This document shows positions 9,773-60,361 of a stretch of 64,000 nucleotides of DNA, one piece after another (the first letter of the stretch is position 1; each line of letters starts with the position of its first letter). Origin of the DNA: a virus. The stretch is from the IMG/VR virus record IMGVR_UViG_3300042988_001121, positions 62,001-126,000 of that record; one strand, written 5' to 3'. The notes under the pieces are model-generated. The model was not told where the DNA came from, ran no database searches, and saw only the letters and a list, made by a program, of their open reading frames with translations. Both the position numbers and the translations under genes were made by a program.

Positions 9773-12700
9773 ATGGCAGCAATTACCGTTGACTCAAATG
9801 CTAACTACGATCTTTGCTCTGGTCAAACGACTGGCGCAACGATGGATACTATTACAGTTAACAACGGTCAATTGTTGGTTAACACTGATACCAAATTTTG
9901 TGCTGGTCATACTACAACAGCCACAGCTTCTAATGGTTCGCTTGATAACGTCACCGTTGCGGCAACCGCAATTGGCGGAGAACTGAAACTTGACGGAACA
10001 AACGTCAAGATTATTCCCTATAATGGAGGATCAGGAACTGCTCCGACACAGATAGCTACTGCACTTGTTCCTACTGCCGCAACATGGTCAGCGGGTCTGG
10101 TGACATTAACATTCGCGGCAGCACATGGTTATCTTGCGGGTGATAGAATCGGTGTCGGTTCGATTAAAGGGCTTGATGAACTGAACGGTTACTGTGGTGT
10201 TTTCACGATCAACACAGTACCAACAACGACCACGCTTACCTATGCCGTTGCCGAGAACCCCGGCACATCAACAATTACTAACGGTAAGGTCATCAAGTAT
10301 TTTACATGTAGTCAGGTACACACATATAACGTAACTGCTGCATCTTGGTCAACTAACACCATAACCTTTACTACAACCGATACTACCTACCTCGCTGTTG
10401 GCAATAGTGTTGTGATTGCTGGTGCTGCACCTACCGGTTATAACGGTACTTATACGATTACTTCAGTTCCTACTTCGACCACATTTACTGTTGCTCAGGT
10501 AACGAATCCGGGTCCATGGACTTCTGGTGGAACAATTACTAAAACAGTTGTTGGAACTTATCTCGGCGCATGGAGTTCGTTTACCGCTGGTCCAACAACA
10601 GCGACTATTGGTGCATCCGGGTATATCAAAGTCAAGGATGTTGTCAACGGTCCATATAAACCCGGCGCATTGACTATTCAGGGCGGAACAACGCCCGTTG
10701 CAAAAGCGATCACCAAAGAAACCACTGGATGGATTGAGGTTGTTGGGGCAGAACTCTCAACGACCCCTGCTACATATAGTATCCCTCGATTGGGTAAATT
10801 TACGGTTACAGGTGAATGGTTCTATCCATTATCATTGCCATTTACTCTGACCACTGGCACAGCATGGGCAGCTAACGTCACCACATACACCACGACCGCT
10901 GCTCATGGTCTTGCTGTTGGGTCAACTGTACAGATTGATGGCGCAACACCAACAGGTTATAATGGTACTTATACCATTGTCAGCGTACCTACTACGACCA
11001 CATTTACTGTTGCTCAGACTGTCAACCCCGGTACATGGACTTCTGGTGGTGCTGGTTATGCACAGATGAAAACTAACGGTGTTGCTCAACAGACAATTCA
11101 GCTTCCTGCCTCGGGCGGTACAACTGTTGGTACAACCCCATATGCAGGGGTTTGGGTGGAAACTTCTCCGGGGTCAGGTACTTACGAATTCTATGCCAAT
11201 GCCTCGAACATGACTGCAACGGCATCACTTTTCGCAACAGATCAATATAGAGGAAAAGTGTGCTACATGGGTGCTGCTGGTCTGTTGAGATTCGGTGGCG
11301 ACGGTACTAACGCATGGGGATATTTGCCTCCTGCCGGTTGTGCAATTCGTTTTGGTAATGTCATTACTGTGCATGCAACAAAAGTTGTTACTAACGGAGT
11401 ATCAACACAAACTGTTCCGAACGCAACACTGACTAATAGACCAAAATTCGTCACAACATCGGCTGGTGTTGTGAATATCGATAAATGGATGACTGCATGG
11501 TATCCGATATTTCAACAGGCTTTCTCGGTCAACATTACCAACACTGGTATTTGTGACAACTTGACGATATCAGAGTGTGCGTCACCTTTTGTTCTTAATA
11601 ACATCGGAACAGGTATATCGGTTATCGCGTCTTCTGCGCAATCGACTGTTCTGAACATATCCGTTTGTTTTGCTGGCGGAACAATCAGTAACTGTTACTG
11701 GAATAAGTTTCATAACGGAACGTCTGGGCAATATAATCAGATTTTATCTGATATTCAGAACCTAACTGTCACAAATGATTTCGGACGTGTGATGACAATT
11801 ACAACTGGCGGTGGCGGTACAGCAAGGAACGCCACCTCTGGTGTAATTTCTCTGACTCGCGTTGCCAATTCTACATGGAATAATTCTACCTTCATTGGCG
11901 GTAGATGTATCACGTTTACTTGTTCTAATCTGACATTCACGAATACTCATTACGCAGACTCAACTGCCGTTGCAACGACTACCACAACTGGTATGTATGC
12001 ATACTCAGTTGAATCTAACTCATCCAACATCAAAATTGATGGGATTGATTTTAATGGATTGTTGAACGTACATCCATATGCCGGATTAGTTGCTGTTCTG
12101 AGTGCGTCATATAATGTTAAAATACGAAATATCGGATCAGTTCTGGCTCCACTTAACTTAGGATCAGCTAACGCATCCGGTGTCGTTATATCGGGTGCAG
12201 CGGGTGGTTCTTGCACCAATATTGAAGTGAAGCGAGTTTATTGTACTAACGCGAGAACAGGTGTTATTGCATCGGCAGATAACAGTTATTCGGGTGTTGT
12301 ACTTGAAAACGTGTGGGCAGGCGCTGCCTTAGCGAACACAAACATCACATTGAATACCTACTTCAAGAATATCGGCGGAACAAACTCGACTACCGGACAG
12401 ACTTCTGTTTATGGTCACACTTGGCAGGATTTCTTTACTCCTGTTGGTGCAACATTGACCACAGGAACTGCATGGTCAGCAGGAACCACTACATATACCA
12501 CGACAGCGGCTCATGGTTTGCTGGCAGGGGATACTGTTACTATATCAGGAGTTGTTGCAACACCGTTTAATGTCTCTGGCGGGTTTAATGGCACATATAC
12601 AGTTGCCACAGTTCCTACCTCAACGACATTCACGGTTGCAATGGCATCGACTCCCGGTACATGGACTTCTGGTGGAACTACCAATCCGTTGAATGGTAAG

Positions 12701-44369: not shown

Positions 44370-44399
44370 TTTGGACTCCGTTTCATTGTTGATGGTGTT

Positions 44400-44427
44400 A
44401 TTGTATCACATAAATTTTATGTGTAGA
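44400..44427 (-). promoter_or_regulatory. Early promoter copy with perfect dyad
   Basis: TCTACA, 16-nt spacer, TACAAT. CACATAAA and TTTATGTG overlap to form a near-perfect palindrome. TAA of the upstream gene abuts the -35. Confidence 0.85.
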
Positions 44428-44856
44428 TTATTTTGATGAGCATTCCAAGCAAGCCACGGAATCAATTATGAAAATAAAATGACCGCCTCGGTTTTCTTGA
44501 TAGAAAACTTCATCCCAAATGTAGTATGAGTTGTTACGTAGAGCACGGATTAAAGCCTCGTTGCCACTCCATCCAACTGTTGACATTGATATAAAGTTTT
44601 TGCCATCTTTTTTGTAGCGAGCCATCGTGCCATAAGCCTTTACGCCCCACCAACATTTTTCCAGCATGTCGAATAGCTCGGGAATCATGAACGAAGACCA
44701 ATTCTCGATTGCATCGTACAATTCTTCTGTCGGATAGCCATCTGAATCGAGATACCCATTCACCTCAAGGCTAGCGATGTGGTCGCGAGTGATCTTCATC
44801 TGATCATCAATTCGCGCTTGGATTTCTTCGTCAGTCAGTCGTTTAATTTGACTCAT
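44428..44856 (-). CDS. Hypothetical 142-aa protein with VACLEC tail
   Basis: ATG 44856 with GGAA 7 nt upstream. N-terminal helical part (DEEIQARIDDQMKITRDHI), acidic, tryptophan-rich middle (EKCWWGVKAYG), end IIDSVACLECSSK. The last codons VACLECS share a 22-bp identical DNA stretch with the neighbouring gene fragment (44891-44912), whose product continues further, suggesting that this tail arose by recombination or truncation at the repeat. Confidence 0.65.
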   Translation of the reverse strand: MSQIKRLTDEEIQARIDDQMKITRDHIASLEVNGYLDSDGYPTEELYDAIENWSSFMIPELFDMLEKCWWGVKAYGTMARYKKDGKNFISMSTVGWSGNEALIRALRNNSYYIWDEVFYQENRGGHFIFIIDSVACLECSSK

Positions 44857-44969
44857 GTTGATTCCAATAAGTTGTACTTGAACCCTTCCCATGAGCATTC
44901 CAAGCAAGCCACAGGTGCATCACCATCGCCTAGTTTAACGGAATGACAGAAGAATTCTTCATTCTTGTT
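44853..44969 (-). pseudogene. 3' fragment of a gene split by the TnpB element
   Basis: Open minus-strand frame with no start codon. It encodes KNEEFFCHSVKLGDGDAPVA followed by CLECSWEGFKYNLLEST and ends TGA overlapping the next gene's ATG. It runs into the left end of the TnpB element and stops being open at 44970-44972. The gene at 46321-46776 on the far side ends abruptly in the element's right end. Joining ...DVYCQ to NKNEEFFCH gives one continuous frame with paired cysteines, so I infer one ~190-aa gene cut in two. Confidence 0.65.
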
Positions 44970-44981
44970 TTAGTAAGGAAA

Positions 44982-45004
44982 CCTAACGACTAAAGATCGT
45001 TAGG
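44982..45004. repeat. Left-end hairpin of TnpB element
   Basis: 8-bp perfect stem, 7-nt loop, shares CCTAAC/GTTAGG with the right-end hairpin. Expected position for an IS200/IS605 left-end palindrome. It is followed by AGGAGG, but too far from the tnpB ATG to be its ribosome-binding site. Confidence 0.8.
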
Positions 45005-45059
45005 AGGAATTGCGTTAAAAATCTTATCTTAAATACGATTATACAACAAACATCCCATT

Positions 45060-46331
45060 ATGTCAACCCAACTTCGCGCCTACAAATACAGACTGTATCC
45101 AGATGTTGCTCAAACAGCAACGCTGGCACAGTTCTTTGGTGCGAAGCGTTGGATTTTCAATCATTTTCTCAATGAACAAAAAACTCGGTTTGATAATAAA
45201 GAAACCCACTTGAGTAACTTTGATTGTAACAAGTTGATTACAGAATTGAAGAAACAAGAAGATACCGATTGGCTTCGTGGGATTGATGATTGGGTCTTAA
45301 AAAGTTCATCAGAAGATTTAAGTGTAGCATACAAAAATTTCTTTGCTTCTATTACAGGAAAACGAAAAGGTCCGAATGTTAAGCCCCCTACCTTCAAGTC
45401 AAAAAATTCCAGACAGAGTTACAGAACTCGTGGCATCAAAATTGATTTTGAGAATAATTTAATTACCGTTCCAAAGATCAAGAGCATCAAGTGTATTATT
45501 CATCGTCAATTCGTAGGAACAATTAAACAAGCAACTGTTTCTAAGAATACTGATGGTCGTTATTATATTTCCATTCTGGTCGATGAAACTATCCAGTTGA
45601 AGCAAATGACTCATCGGGAAGTTGGTATTGACTTTGGGCTTAGAGATTTAGCTATTTTATCAACAGGAGTCAAATTCAATCATCCAGAACAAATGCTTTC
45701 AAGAACCAAGAAAGCATTGAAAAGAGCACAAAGAATCCTTGCTCGTAAAACAAAAGGGTCTAATTCTTATCATAAACAGCGTTTAGTTGTAGCAAAATTG
45801 TATTCAAGACTAACTCGAATGAGGAATGAATATTATCATCTGATTTCTCGTTACTTGGTTAATAATTTTGACGCAATATACCTTGAAGATTTAAACGTCA
45901 ATGGAATGTTGAAGAATCGTAGGTTATCAAGAAAGATACACGAAACCGCTTGGTCTACTTTGAAGAATATGATCAAGTATAAAGCAAATTATGCTGGAAA
46001 GACTGTTCATGAAATCAACCGTTGGCTCCCATCATCCAAGACTTGTTCTTGCTGTGGTTACAAACTTGACAAACTGAATCTCGATGTTCGTGAATGGACT
46101 TGTCCAGTTTGTAACGAGCACCATGACCGTGACCTAAACGCTGCTATAAACATTCTGAATCAAGGTCAAATTGATCTTTATGATTCTAAACAAAATTCCA
46201 GCGCAACACTGGAATTGGAGGCTTCGCCTCCAATGGCTTTGCAGAAACATTCTATGAAAATCGAGAGGTCCAGTTCTAAACGAACTGGTTGGAATGGGGA
46301 GCAAGCAAGCCTAACAGTATTTAGCTGTTAG
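45060..46331 (+). CDS. tnpB: TnpB RNA-guided nuclease (IS605 OrfB type)
   Basis: 423 aa. RuvC-I D in GIDFGL (about residue 190), RuvC-II E in YLEDLN (about 276), zinc ribbon CSCCG....CPVC and RuvC-III D in HDRDLNAA (D358), all intact; N-terminal helical TnpB domain starts LRAYKYRLYPD. TnpB proteins use an RNA from the element's end to cut the empty donor site. C-terminal 60 residues are encoded in DNA full of hairpins, consistent with overlap with the omegaRNA. No good Shine-Dalgarno. Opposite orientation to surrounding phage genes. Less similar to the other two TnpBs here than they are to each other. Confidence 0.93.
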   Translation: MSTQLRAYKYRLYPDVAQTATLAQFFGAKRWIFNHFLNEQKTRFDNKETHLSNFDCNKLITELKKQEDTDWLRGIDDWVLKSSSEDLSVAYKNFFASITGKRKGPNVKPPTFKSKNSRQSYRTRGIKIDFENNLITVPKIKSIKCIIHRQFVGTIKQATVSKNTDGRYYISILVDETIQLKQMTHREVGIDFGLRDLAILSTGVKFNHPEQMLSRTKKALKRAQRILARKTKGSNSYHKQRLVVAKLYSRLTRMRNEYYHLISRYLVNNFDAIYLEDLNVNGMLKNRRLSRKIHETAWSTLKNMIKYKANYAGKTVHEINRWLPSSKTCSCCGYKLDKLNLDVREWTCPVCNEHHDRDLNAAINILNQGQIDLYDSKQNSSATLELEASPPMALQKHSMKIERSSSKRTGWNGEQASLTVFSC

Positions 46332-46340
46332 GTGGTTGAC
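46190..46340 (+). ncRNA. Candidate omegaRNA (reRNA) of the TnpB element
   Basis: Four consecutive perfect stem-loops in the tnpB 3' end and right end: AATTCCAG/CTGGAATT (46194-46216), GGAGGC/GCCTCC (46217-46231), CCAGTTC/GAACTGG (46270-46288) and CCTAACAG/CTGTTAGG (46310-46332). This dense structure is what is known for omegaRNA scaffolds of TnpB. The guide would be the ~16-20 nt after the right end, i.e. host gene sequence from about 46341. Boundaries are approximate. Confidence 0.55.
46310..46332. repeat. Right-end hairpin of TnpB element
   Basis: 8-bp perfect stem with loop TATTTAG; mate of the left-end hairpin. It contains the tnpB stop on the plus strand and the artificial stop of the interrupted gene on the minus strand. 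Confidence 0.8.
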
Positions 46341-46776
46341 AATAAACGTCCCATGAGTCTTTGTGTTGTCGGTAGATCGCGATATCGCGAACACCTTCTT
46401 TATGCCGCATTCGTTCCAGAACTTTTGATGTGTTCTTGCGAGTCTTCAAACTGATTTTAACACAATCTCTGCCAACAGTAAAGTAGATGTAAATACAATA
46501 ACGGATTTTAGGTTTCCTTGCTTTACGTTTCCTTGCAATTTGTTTTCGTGTTAACCGATCATCGGGATCATGGCTCACCGCAATCACGGCAGGATGTGCA
46601 TGCAGCAGAATTTTAGTCATCTGTTCGTCATAGTAAAGATACCCTAGCTTGCATTCGTATCTTTCGCTGTTCCATTCAACAATCGCGTATTTGTTGTCAT
46701 CATAAGCAAGTAACGTGACTTCCTTGATCGAGTGGTCATCTTCCTCGAATGGATAGTCGGTAAAGAATTTACGCAT
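46321..46776 (-). pseudogene. 5' part of gene interrupted by TnpB element
   Basis: Encodes 151 residues from ATG 46776: N-terminal acidic part (FEEDDHSIKEVTLLAYDDN), a basic linker (RLTRKQIARKRKARKPKIR) and a beta domain ending SWDVYC. The last codons (QPPNS) and stop lie in the element's right end, so the true C-terminus is missing; the matching tail with a CLEC motif is at 44853-44969. It may still make a truncated protein. Overlaps the upstream gene by 8 bases. Confidence 0.6.
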
Positions 46777-47101: not shown

Positions 47102-48337
47102 TCATGCCGTTTTATAAAAATCTATAAAACTGACTAGACATTTCAACGAGGTTGCTTTTGGTAACTCCAAAAGACTTACATCCTCTCTATGTCTGTAATC
47201 GGCTGATTCGTCCGATGTGAATCCATAAAGGTCATTCATACCTTTATTGTAAATGTTAACAGCAGCATTCAAGTCTCTATTATGATGGGAACCACAAGAA
47301 GGACAATCCCACTCTCTTATCGATAGCTCCATCTTTTCAATTCTATGACCACAAGAAGAACATGTCTTACTAGAAGGGTAGAAACGATCTATTTTATGGA
47401 AAGTTCTACCTCGCCAATTAGATTTATATGAAATCATTGACACCAATGATGACCATGATGCATCAGATATAGATTTTGATAATTTTCTATTCTTCAGCAT
47501 TCCTTTTATGTTCAAGTCTTCCATTACAATCGTATCATAATTTTTTACAAGCCAAGAACTGATATTGTGGTGAATAAAAGATCGCTGGTTACTAACTTCT
47601 CTGTGAATTCTAGCAACTTTTGTTCTTTGTATTTCCCTTCTATTGGAACCTTCTTGTTTTCTACTAAAGTGCTGCTGTGCGGTTTTTAGCTTCGCTTGGT
47701 TTTTACGAAACCATTTTGGATTAGAGATTTTCATTCCGTTACTAAGAATGCACAAATCTGTTAATCCAAGATCAACACCAATAGTTTTACCTGTTTGTTC
47801 GTAAAGAACTACGTCTTCTTCAACTAGAACAGATACAAAATATTGGTTTGTTTTATTTTTAGAGACAGTAACCGACTTGACCTGCCCATAAAACTTTCTA
47901 TCAATGACCACCTTCAATGGAGACATTTTAGGCAGTTTAATTTTACTGGTATCGAAATTTATGAATTTATTGAAGCCTATAGCCTGCCCCGGTATTCTGA
48001 AAGAATCTGTTGACACGCCCTTTTTCTTAAATTTCATCCTACCAAGTTTTGTTTTCCTTGAAGGGTTAAAATATTGCTTCTTTGTTTCAATGAAATCCAT
48101 GCGTTTTTGCTGAAGCGCATAACTTATTGTATCATTGAGCCAAGAAAACTCAGGCATATCTTTCAATATCTTTTCATCCATCGGTCGGTTCGGACCGTCC
48201 TTGCTATATGAATTGAAATTTGCCACCAGTTGATTCCAAACAAAACGCACGCAACCAAAAGTAGAATCCAAAAATTTAGACTGCTCTTTTGTTGGGTATA
48301 CCCTATATTTGTAGGCTCGAATTTGTTTTGGCATCAT
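47102..48337 (-). CDS. tnpB: TnpB RNA-guided nuclease of IS607 element
   Basis: 411 aa starting at tandem ATGs (48337/48334). TnpB start QIRAYKYRVYPTKEQ, RuvC-I GVDLGL, RuvC-II VMEDLN, zinc ribbon CSSCGHR....CPSCG and RuvC-III NRDLNAA are intact. Closely related to the third TnpB at 59159 (shared FGCVRF.WNQ, NPKWFRKNQAKLK, GRTFHKIDRF). A 7-bp hairpin CTTTTGG/CCAAAAG near its 3' end (47154-47172) may belong to its guide RNA, which would end in the flanking gene fragment. Confidence 0.92.
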   Translation of the reverse strand: MMPKQIRAYKYRVYPTKEQSKFLDSTFGCVRFVWNQLVANFNSYSKDGPNRPMDEKILKDMPEFSWLNDTISYALQQKRMDFIETKKQYFNPSRKTKLGRMKFKKKGVSTDSFRIPGQAIGFNKFINFDTSKIKLPKMSPLKVVIDRKFYGQVKSVTVSKNKTNQYFVSVLVEEDVVLYEQTGKTIGVDLGLTDLCILSNGMKISNPKWFRKNQAKLKTAQQHFSRKQEGSNRREIQRTKVARIHREVSNQRSFIHHNISSWLVKNYDTIVMEDLNIKGMLKNRKLSKSISDASWSSLVSMISYKSNWRGRTFHKIDRFYPSSKTCSSCGHRIEKMELSIREWDCPSCGSHHNRDLNAAVNIYNKGMNDLYGFTSDESADYRHREDVSLLELPKATSLKCLVSFIDFYKTA

Positions 48338-48362
48338 AAAACTATAAAAATTATATAGTTAT

Positions 48363-48956
48363 TTATTGTTTGTCTACTTTCAATGTCTCTATTAGTTCAA
48401 TTGTTTTTCTCTTACTGCGCCGTTTACCATAAATTCTGGCGCAGAAAGATGTTATCTCTGACACGAAATCTTGTACGATATCTTCATTCCCGACAGAAAC
48501 TTGGTTCACGACTTCTATTTCTTTTTTATTCGCACGAAGCATAGTTTCTATGTAATTAAAACCAAACCGAGTCAGTCGGTCTTTGTGTTCAACGACAATC
48601 TTGGTAAAATCTTGTTCGGATAATAACTTTTGTAATTTTGGGCGCGAATCGTTAAGACCAGAACCAAATTCTGTTATTACATCATGAATTTTATATCCGC
48701 GAGCAGTGCAATATGAAATCATCCTATCTTTTTGAGATTCTAGATTAGTTTTATTGACTGTGCTACTAACACGACAGTATATAACGATTTTTTCTTCGCT
48801 TTTCTCTTTGACGCCGATAAATTTATTATATGTTTCTGTGTCAACAAAATTCATACCGCCGATTTTATGGAACTTTAGTTTACCGGCAGATTTCCAGTTC
48901 CATAAAGTCATTTTGGTAACACCTAGGTCTTTAGCAAATTTACTCAACTTAATCAT
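48363..48956 (-). CDS. tnpA: IS607-type serine recombinase TnpA
   Basis: 197 aa. N-terminal MerR-like helix-turn-helix (LSKFAKDLGVTKMTLWNWKS) followed by the short serine recombinase catalytic domain: IYCRVSS (nucleophile Ser64/65), NLESQKDRM, GSGLNDSRPKL, and the arginine motif EHKDRLTRFGF. This HTH-first order is specific to IS607. It excises and inserts the element via a circular intermediate. All catalytic positions are present. Confidence 0.93.
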   Translation of the reverse strand: MIKLSKFAKDLGVTKMTLWNWKSAGKLKFHKIGGMNFVDTETYNKFIGVKEKSEEKIVIYCRVSSTVNKTNLESQKDRMISYCTARGYKIHDVITEFGSGLNDSRPKLQKLLSEQDFTKIVVEHKDRLTRFGFNYIETMLRANKKEIEVVNQVSVGNEDIVQDFVSEITSFCARIYGKRRSKRKTIELIETLKVDKQ

Positions 48957-59158: not shown

Positions 59159-60361
59159 ATGCAACACAAGGCATATAAGTTTAGACTGTACCCAACGAAA
59201 GTTCAAGAAGCTCTCTTGAACCAAACTTTTGGGTGCGTTCGTTTCTTATGGAACCAACATGTTGCTGCTTTCAATAGTTTTTCTTCCTTCGGTCCAAACA
59301 AAATTGTAACATCAAAACTATTGAAGGACACAGAAGAATTTTCTTGGTTGAATTCTGTTTCTGCGGCTGCTCTGCAACAAAAAGATAACGATTTTTCTGA
59401 ATTTAAGAAGCAGTTTTTCTCCAAAACACGTAAAAAGAAAATTGAGCGCCCTAAATTCAAAAAGAAAGGACAGAAAGACTCTTATCGTCTTCCTAATCAA
59501 AAGTTTACTTTGGACCAAGAAACAAAAAGAATTCGACTCGAAAAAATTGGTAAAGTGAAAATAGTTTTAGACAAAACAATACCAGAAGGCGCTAAGTTTT
59601 TATCGGTAACAATAACAAAAAATCAAACCGGTGAGTATTACGCATCTGTTTTGGTTGAACAAGAAATAAGATGTAAGGAAACAACAGGAAATAGTATTGG
59701 TATAGACCTCGGGTTTATTGATTTGATGACTCTATCAAATGGAATGGTTATACGCAACCCAAGGTGGTTTCGTAAAAATCAAGCGAAGCTAAAAAGAAAA
59801 CAAAAATCATTAAGTAGAAAAAAGATAGGCTCTCGTAGGAGAGAAAAACAAAGAATTGTTGTTGCAAAACAGCATCTAAAAGTTGCTCGACAGCGAGAAT
59901 GGTATCATCATCAAATTTCATCGTGGTTGGTTAATAATTTTGACACTATTTGTATGGAAGACTTGAATTTGAATGGAATGAAAAAATTTCTAGGAAAATC
60001 TGTCAATGATGCCGGTCTTTCTAATCTAATGAATAAAATTGAGTATAAATCTAAGTGGTACGGAAGAACCTTCCATAAAGTGGATAGATTCTTTGCATCC
60101 TCAAAAACATGTTCTTCTTGTGGCAATAAAACAGCGTTTGGTATGGATGTGCGAGAATGGACATGTCAGGCGTGTGGTACATTCCACGACAGAGATTTGA
60201 ATGCATCAATAAACATTTTGAAAAAAGGTCTTAGTGACCTTTATCAATATACTTCGGCTGAGTTAACCGAAGTCATTGAACGTGGAGAAGTCGTAAGACC
60301 TAGATTGGGTGAAATTCATCCAATGGTGGCTACTTCTATGAAGCGTTTAGCGAAACTGTAA
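59159..60361 (+). CDS. tnpB: TnpB RNA-guided nuclease, third copy
   Basis: 400 aa. AYKFRLYPTKVQ start, RuvC-I GIDLGF, RuvC-II CMEDLN, zinc ribbon CSSCGNK....CQACG and RuvC-III DRDLNAS are intact. Nearest relative in the window is the IS607 tnpB. Its 3' end has stem-loops TTCGG/CCGAA (60254-60272 region), ATTGG...CCAAT (60304-60324 region) and the 60350-60376 palindrome, again suggesting an overlapping guide RNA. No transposase is nearby. Confidence 0.92.
   Translation: MQHKAYKFRLYPTKVQEALLNQTFGCVRFLWNQHVAAFNSFSSFGPNKIVTSKLLKDTEEFSWLNSVSAAALQQKDNDFSEFKKQFFSKTRKKKIERPKFKKKGQKDSYRLPNQKFTLDQETKRIRLEKIGKVKIVLDKTIPEGAKFLSVTITKNQTGEYYASVLVEQEIRCKETTGNSIGIDLGFIDLMTLSNGMVIRNPRWFRKNQAKLKRKQKSLSRKKIGSRRREKQRIVVAKQHLKVARQREWYHHQISSWLVNNFDTICMEDLNLNGMKKFLGKSVNDAGLSNLMNKIEYKSKWYGRTFHKVDRFFASSKTCSSCGNKTAFGMDVREWTCQACGTFHDRDLNASINILKKGLSDLYQYTSAELTEVIERGEVVRPRLGEIHPMVATSMKRLAKL

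What the first reader, a model, noticed from the sequence alone, without database searches (positions are those of the whole stretch)
44853..46776. IS605-type tnpB element splits a phage gene that can be rejoined in frame
A start-less fragment (44853-44969) ends at the left side of the element, and a truncated gene (46321-46776) ends inside its right hairpin. Removing about 44970-46340 joins ...DVYCQ to NKNEEFFCH without frameshift, restoring a protein with four cysteines. Precise excision would therefore repair the gene.
Basis: inference. Interest (0 to 1): 0.7.

Follow-up and report, generated by a model that had tools for sequence, protein, structure and literature searches.

The report
TnpB element interrupting a phage operon
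A small mobile element, carrying only an RNA-guided DNA-cutting gene (tnpB), sits in a short gene cluster of an uncultured T4-like phage; cutting it out at its true ends would leave an open reading frame, but whether that frame was ever one gene is unproven, and the element itself is of a known kind.

Summary
The element is real. Comparison with related phage elements corrects its ends: it lies 3' of TTCAT (44958-44962), spans 44963-46340 and ends in TTGAC. At these ends the flanks rejoin in frame without a stop, giving 181 codons (...SWDVY-Y-EEFFCHSV...LLEST*, overlapping the next start as ATGA).

"One split gene" is not established. The right part has no homologue. The left fragment's only homologue found is the C-terminal half of a separate 72-aa zinc-ribbon protein, whose first Cys pair has no counterpart in the right part. 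One 181-aa gene (about 55%) and two genes joined by a deletion (about 40%) both remain open.

The phage record (178,209 bp, 127-bp terminal repeat) has no detectable TnpA, so self-excision is not expected. TnpB keeps its catalytic residues and is under purifying selection (dN/dS about 0.12). Its predicted guide matches the empty allele behind TTCAT, so it should destroy excised copies, not favour repair. This is a new tnpB-only IS200/IS605 member with an ISDra2-like pentanucleotide target. Relatives include 49-50 bp hairpin-only copies.

The parts
44958..44962 (+). Left target / predicted TAM, TTCAT
   Evidence: TTCAT 18-19 nt before the left hairpin here, in L025, L026, L027 and in two hairpin-only copies (L020, L036); TTCAA in L024
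44963..46340 (+). tnpB-only IS200/IS605-type element, 1378 bp
   Evidence: Left end from the shared TTCAT position, right end from loss of conservation after GTT(G/T)A(C/T)
44982..45004 (+). Left-end hairpin CCTAACGA-CTAAAGA-TCGTTAGG
   Evidence: Sequence and fold
45060..46331 (+). tnpB, 423 aa, RuvC D191/E276/D358 and zinc finger kept
   Evidence: Pfam PF12323, PF01385, PF07282; closest named solved structures are ISDra2-type TnpB 8bf8/8h1j; dN/dS 0.12 against L024
46310..46332 (+). Right-end hairpin, also predicted 3' stem of the omegaRNA
   Evidence: 7 of 8 pairs have changes on both sides, 93.8% of cells paired, 0/500 shuffles as high
46341..46360 (+). Predicted omegaRNA guide (aataaacgtcccatgagtct), outside the element
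   Evidence: Inference from position directly after the right end (PMC8612924, PMC10278001); no other TTCAT-preceded match in the phage
46341..46776 (-). Right part: ORF of 145 codons up to the element, which in the inserted state ends 6 codons inside the right end (46321)
   Evidence: no homologue in phages, viral contigs, genomes, Pfam or PHROGs
44853..44962 (-). Left part: 36-codon tail EEFFCHSVKLGDGDAPVACLECSWEGFKYNLLEST*, stop overlapping the next start (ATGA); homologous to the C-terminal half of a 72-aa zinc-ribbon protein
   Evidence: coding score top 5% of off-frame windows, 20th percentile of true ones
44428..44856 (-). Next gene of the cluster, 142 aa
   Evidence: 33% relative in L022
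46769..47035 (-). Previous gene of the cluster, 88 aa, overlaps the start of 46776
   Evidence: phrog_12201, E 8e-15; relatives in CBB/GAP32-type jumbo phages

Best explanation
A tnpB-only element of the IS200/IS605 superfamily (ISDra2-like ends, pentanucleotide target TTCAT) inserted 3' of TTCAT in a minus-strand gene cluster of a T4-like phage and cut an open reading frame. Shown: the ends, the target, the hairpin covariation, the intact TnpB, the absence of a detectable TnpA in the phage, and the in-frame empty-site reading. Inferred: TnpB processes its own 3' mRNA into an omegaRNA whose guide is the right flank (46341 onwards); in co-infecting phages that lack the element the RNP cuts at TTCAT plus guide, and recombination copies the element in, so the element behaves like a homing element and tends to be kept, not excised. 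Mobility to new sites or precise excision needs a TnpA supplied in trans. Most likely (about 55%) the interrupted frame was one gene of 181 codons that lost its 36-codon zinc-ribbon-like tail.
For: Ends and target in seven insertion sites; right-hairpin covariation; TnpB domains, catalytic residues and selection; no Y1 TnpA in the 178,209-bp record with 127-bp terminal repeat; in-frame, stop-free join only at 44963 or 44969; tail ends in an ATGA overlap with the next gene; local-codon score of the tail fits coding. Published: insertion 3' of a pentanucleotide without duplication, excision strictly TnpA-dependent, TnpB cuts the donor joint (PMC2806898, PMC8612924), and TnpB-driven spread in plasmids (PMC11870625).
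Against: No homologue spans the junction. The tail's only homologue found is a separate 72-aa protein with a CPTC knuckle that the right part lacks. The alignment's extension across the junction is weak (p about 0.03-0.05). A single in-frame join has a chance of about 1 in 3. No empty allele was found. TnpB activity and omegaRNA expression are untested.
Confidence: 0.7

Rival explanations
1. Two different genes flank the element. The right ORF (46776) and a separate zinc-ribbon gene (left fragment) were brought together by a deletion linked to the element, for example recombination between two copies. Removing the element would then give an accidental fusion, not a repaired gene.
For: The left fragment is 60% identical over 25 aa (E about 6e-12) to the second half of a stand-alone 72-aa zinc-ribbon protein with CPTC in its first half. 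The right part has no CxxC and no similarity to that first half (semi-global upstream score below the null mean). Copies of the element family occur elsewhere in the same genome.
Against: It needs an extra deletion event. The join at independently defined ends is in frame and open, and the alignment extends weakly across the junction.
Confidence: 0.4
2. The inserted state is functional: the right ORF uses the stop in the element's right end (CQPPNS*) as its C-terminus, and the left fragment is dead sequence, so nothing needs repair.
For: The ORF of 151 codons is intact in the only two records seen, which are 100% identical. The solo right end in the RNA ligase gene likewise supplies the stop near a natural C-terminus.
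Against: No selection test is possible without a diverged homologue.
Confidence: 0.3
3. The element is an IStron or other self-splicing intron, so the host protein is made by splicing.
For: tnpB-carrying IStrons exist (PMC4227781, listed).
Against: No group I or II intron by Rfam at the gathering score, or at E up to 5 for the region; the ends are IS200/IS605 hairpins.
Confidence: 0.02

Closest known systems
ISDra2 (Deinococcus radiodurans), IS200/IS605 family
   Same: Pentanucleotide target on the left with no target duplication, subterminal hairpins, TnpB of the 8bf8/8h1j type, scaffold ending at the right end
   Different: Target TTCAT instead of TTGAT; no tnpA in the element or in the phage genome; phage host
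ISCaje1-4 in Campylobacter T4-like phages CP220 and CPt10 (PMC2853527)
   Same: tnpB-only IS200/IS605 elements in T4-like phage genomes, at different sites in different phages
   Different: Sequence and target not compared here; host and lineage differ
Phage TnpB genes of Microcystis phage Mic1, Enterococcus phages iF6 and EFP01, Bacillus SPG24-type phages, Prevotella Lak phages
   Same: Homologous TnpB, 35-40% identity
   Different: The phage collection has no DNA match to the hairpin ends; not the same element
TnpB-driven spread of insertion sequences in plasmids (PMC11870625)
   Same: Expected logic: the guide records the insertion site and cuts copies that lack the element
   Different: Shown there for plasmids; here it is inferred for a phage without tnpA

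Membership tests
IS200/IS605 superfamily | Y1 (HUH) transposase TnpA | tested here: not met
   PF01797 finds nothing in the 178-kb phage record; tnpB-only members are a known subgroup (PMC2853527)
IS200/IS605 superfamily | Subterminal hairpins at both ends | tested here: met
   Hairpins at 44982-45004 and 46310-46332; right stem covaries, 7 of 8 pairs changed on both sides
IS200/IS605 superfamily | Insertion 3' of a fixed 4-5 nt target, no target duplication | tested here: met
   TTCAT in 6 of 7 sites, TTCAA in the seventh; no duplicated flank
IS200/IS605 superfamily | Precise excision restoring the donor site | not testable with these tools
   No empty allele in the collections searched
TnpB RNA-guided nuclease | RuvC catalytic triad and zinc finger | tested here: met
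   D191, E276, D358 invariant among three relatives; CSCC...CPVC; Pfam and PDB matches
TnpB RNA-guided nuclease | omegaRNA ending at the right end, 3' stem-loop within 10 nt of the guide | tested here: met
   Stem ends 8 nt before the end in all six full copies; expression not testable
TnpB RNA-guided nuclease | TAM-dependent cleavage of the empty site | not testable with these tools
   Prediction only: TTCAT + AATAAACGTCCCATGAGTCT
IStron | Group I intron in the element | tested here: not met
One split phage gene | Full-length homologue crossing the junction | tested here: inconclusive
   None found; left-part homologue is a separate 72-aa protein, cross-junction extension p about 0.03-0.05

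The most novel reading that the evidence does not exclude
In these uncultured phages the tnpB element persists and spreads without any transposase, only by TnpB-guided copying into co-infecting phages at the same site. The 49-50 bp hairpin-only copies (TTCAT ... GTTTAC) seen in other phages are mobile or relic non-autonomous forms of the same family, and they tend to land exactly in front of start codons, because TTCAT is the reverse complement of ATGAA.
Probability: 0.25. Interest if true: 0.5.

Novelty: new member of a known kind. Interest (0 to 1): 0.3.

Why it matters
It corrects the ends of a phage-borne tnpB element and gives a concrete, cheaply testable TAM and guide (TTCAT + AATAAACGTCCCATGAGTCT). 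If TnpB cuts the empty allele, the 'repaired gene' is the element's own target, which makes phage tnpB elements comparable to the homing endonucleases of T4-like phages. It also shows why an in-frame join across an insertion is weak evidence for one gene.

Tried and rejected
First guesses for the target (TTGTT, TTTAG, TTGT), made from the bases next to the left hairpin: rejected once relatives shared TTCAT 18-19 nt out. Homologues of the right part: none in phages, viral contigs (only an identical contig), genome contigs, Pfam or PHROGs. Related elements in bacterial genomes: none found (pattern-based, limited reach). Intron: none. RNA ligase homologues as a test of the solo right end: they end near the junction, so they do not decide. 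AlphaFold model of the right part: mean pLDDT 43, not usable. Codon model trained on large genes: ambiguous for the left fragment; a model from local small genes was used instead. One search used a wrong spacer length in the pattern for hairpin-only copies, so it says nothing about how common they are.

Full report
WHAT THE WINDOW IS. The window is bases 62001-126000 of a 178,209-bp virus record with a 127-bp direct terminal repeat, so probably complete. It has T4-like genes (terminase, portal and capsid judged from the translations; RNA ligase by PHROGs). A second IMG/VR contig (3300047552_001348) carries the same insertion and is 100% identical over 20,438 bp.

THE ELEMENT. tnpB at 45060-46331 (+) encodes a 423-aa protein with the OrfB_IS605, Cas12f1-like TNB and HTH_OrfB domains. 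Its closest named solved relatives are the TnpB structures 8bf8 and 8h1j. The RuvC residues (D191, E276, D358) and the zinc finger are present. Against its 82%-identical relative in L024, dN is 0.12 and dS 0.97, omega about 0.12, so the gene has been kept under purifying selection. No Y1 transposase is detectable in the phage; among the relatives' contigs only L028's has a partial one.

THE ENDS. I compared full copies from five other insertion sites: L024/L015/L020 at 82% TnpB identity, L025/L018 at 62%, L026 and L027 at 61% (the same contig, two copies), and L028 at 59%. At the right, similarity runs through the hairpin and GTTGAC, GTTTAC or GTTTAT, then stops. The window's copy and a solo right end elsewhere in the same genome (G000:C1 49243-49295, inside the 3' end of an RNA ligase gene) end identically in GTTGAC and then differ. 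The right end is therefore 46340. At the left, TTCAT lies 18-19 nt before the hairpin foot in the window, L025, L026, L027 and two hairpin-only copies, and TTCAA lies there in L024. The chance per site of TTCAT at one of two positions is about 0.005. L028 has a different foot sequence and could not be placed. The element is thus 44963-46340, inserted 3' of TTCAT. The right stem is supported by covariation: 7 of 8 pairs change on both sides, 93.8% of cells pair, and none of 500 shuffles reaches that.

THE JOIN. With 46340 fixed, I tested 26 left boundaries. Only 44963 (TTCAT|) and 44969 give a stop-free frame into the left fragment. The correct join is ...RQHKDSWDVY-Y-EEFFCHSVKLGDGDAPVACLECSWEGFKYNLLEST*, 181 codons, whose stop overlaps the next start as ATGA. 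The right ORF has no stop of its own before the element, so either its natural end lies beyond the element or it has been lost.

ONE GENE OR TWO. Coding score with a model of local small genes: the left tail scores in the top 5% of off-frame windows and at the 20th percentile of true ones, so it is probably coding. Homologues: none for the right part in any collection. For the joined protein one match appeared, in contig 3300046096_000179. It is a complete 72-aa zinc-ribbon protein (L050 1471-1689, minus). The tail alone accounts for nearly all of the match (92 of 102 raw points; 60% identity over 25 aa, E about 6e-12). The extension into the right part is marginal (p 0.03-0.05), and the region holding the homologue's first CPTC knuckle has no counterpart (semi-global score below the null mean). 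So the left fragment is the second half of a zinc ribbon. Either this phage had a fusion that lacks the first knuckle, or a separate zinc-ribbon gene lost its first half in a deletion next to the element. I give about 55% to one gene and 40% to two; the rest is for neither.

HOW IT PROBABLY WORKS. Published work on ISDra2 shows insertion 3' of a pentanucleotide without duplication, excision that absolutely needs TnpA, and TnpB cutting of the donor joint next to the same pentanucleotide as TAM (PMC2806898, PMC8612924). The right end demarcates the scaffold and the guide lies outside (PMC10278001). By analogy the guide here is 46341-46360 and the TAM is TTCAT; no second TTCAT-preceded match to the guide exists in the phage. 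TnpB should then cut phage genomes without the element and favour its copying in, as shown for plasmids (PMC11870625). This is the opposite of a repair switch: the 'repaired' allele is the target. The step from sequence to activity is inference.

NOVELTY. tnpB-only IS200/IS605 elements in T4-like phages are known (PMC2853527), and TnpB is common in phages (400 phage records match). The TTCAT target and the phage family are, as far as searched, a new member of a known kind.

Noticed in passing
L036 (minus strand, about 721-774) and L020 (about 9892-9941): 49- and 50-bp hairpin-only copies, TTCAT | left-end-like half + hairpin + GTTTAC, with no tnpB, in two different phage contigs; they look like non-autonomous forms or deletion relics.
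   Followed up: partly
L018/L025, L026, L036: Three of the TTCAT sites lie exactly at the ATGAA start of a long ORF (TTCAT is its reverse complement). With G000's base rate of 4.7% of TTCAT sites at starts, the chance of 3 or more of 6-7 is 0.002-0.003. Survival of non-disruptive insertions is a likely cause.
   Followed up: partly
G000:C1 49243-49295 (outside the window): Solo right end of the family inside the 3' end of a T4-type RNA ligase gene, supplying its stop codon.
   Followed up: partly
window 47102-48956: A second TnpB (411 aa) next to a serine resolvase (197 aa), an IS607-type pair, immediately upstream of the same gene cluster.
   Followed up: partly
window 59159-60361: A third TnpB gene (400 aa, plus strand); three tnpB genes in one phage genome.
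   Followed up: partly
window 44436-44457 and 44891-44912: An identical 22-bp repeat encodes VACLECS at the ends of two neighbouring reading frames, suggesting past recombination between their C-termini.
   Followed up: no
right ends of window, L024, L025, L026, L027, L028: The guide-like bases before the right hairpin co-vary with the right end: ...GCAAG(C) with TTGAC, ...GGAAA with TTTAC or TTTAT.
   Followed up: no
many sites in the window, e.g. 44399-44434: A dispersed 40-80 bp promoter-like repeat (AAAATAATCTACACATAAAATTT...GTGATACAATAAC) stands before many genes.
   Followed up: no
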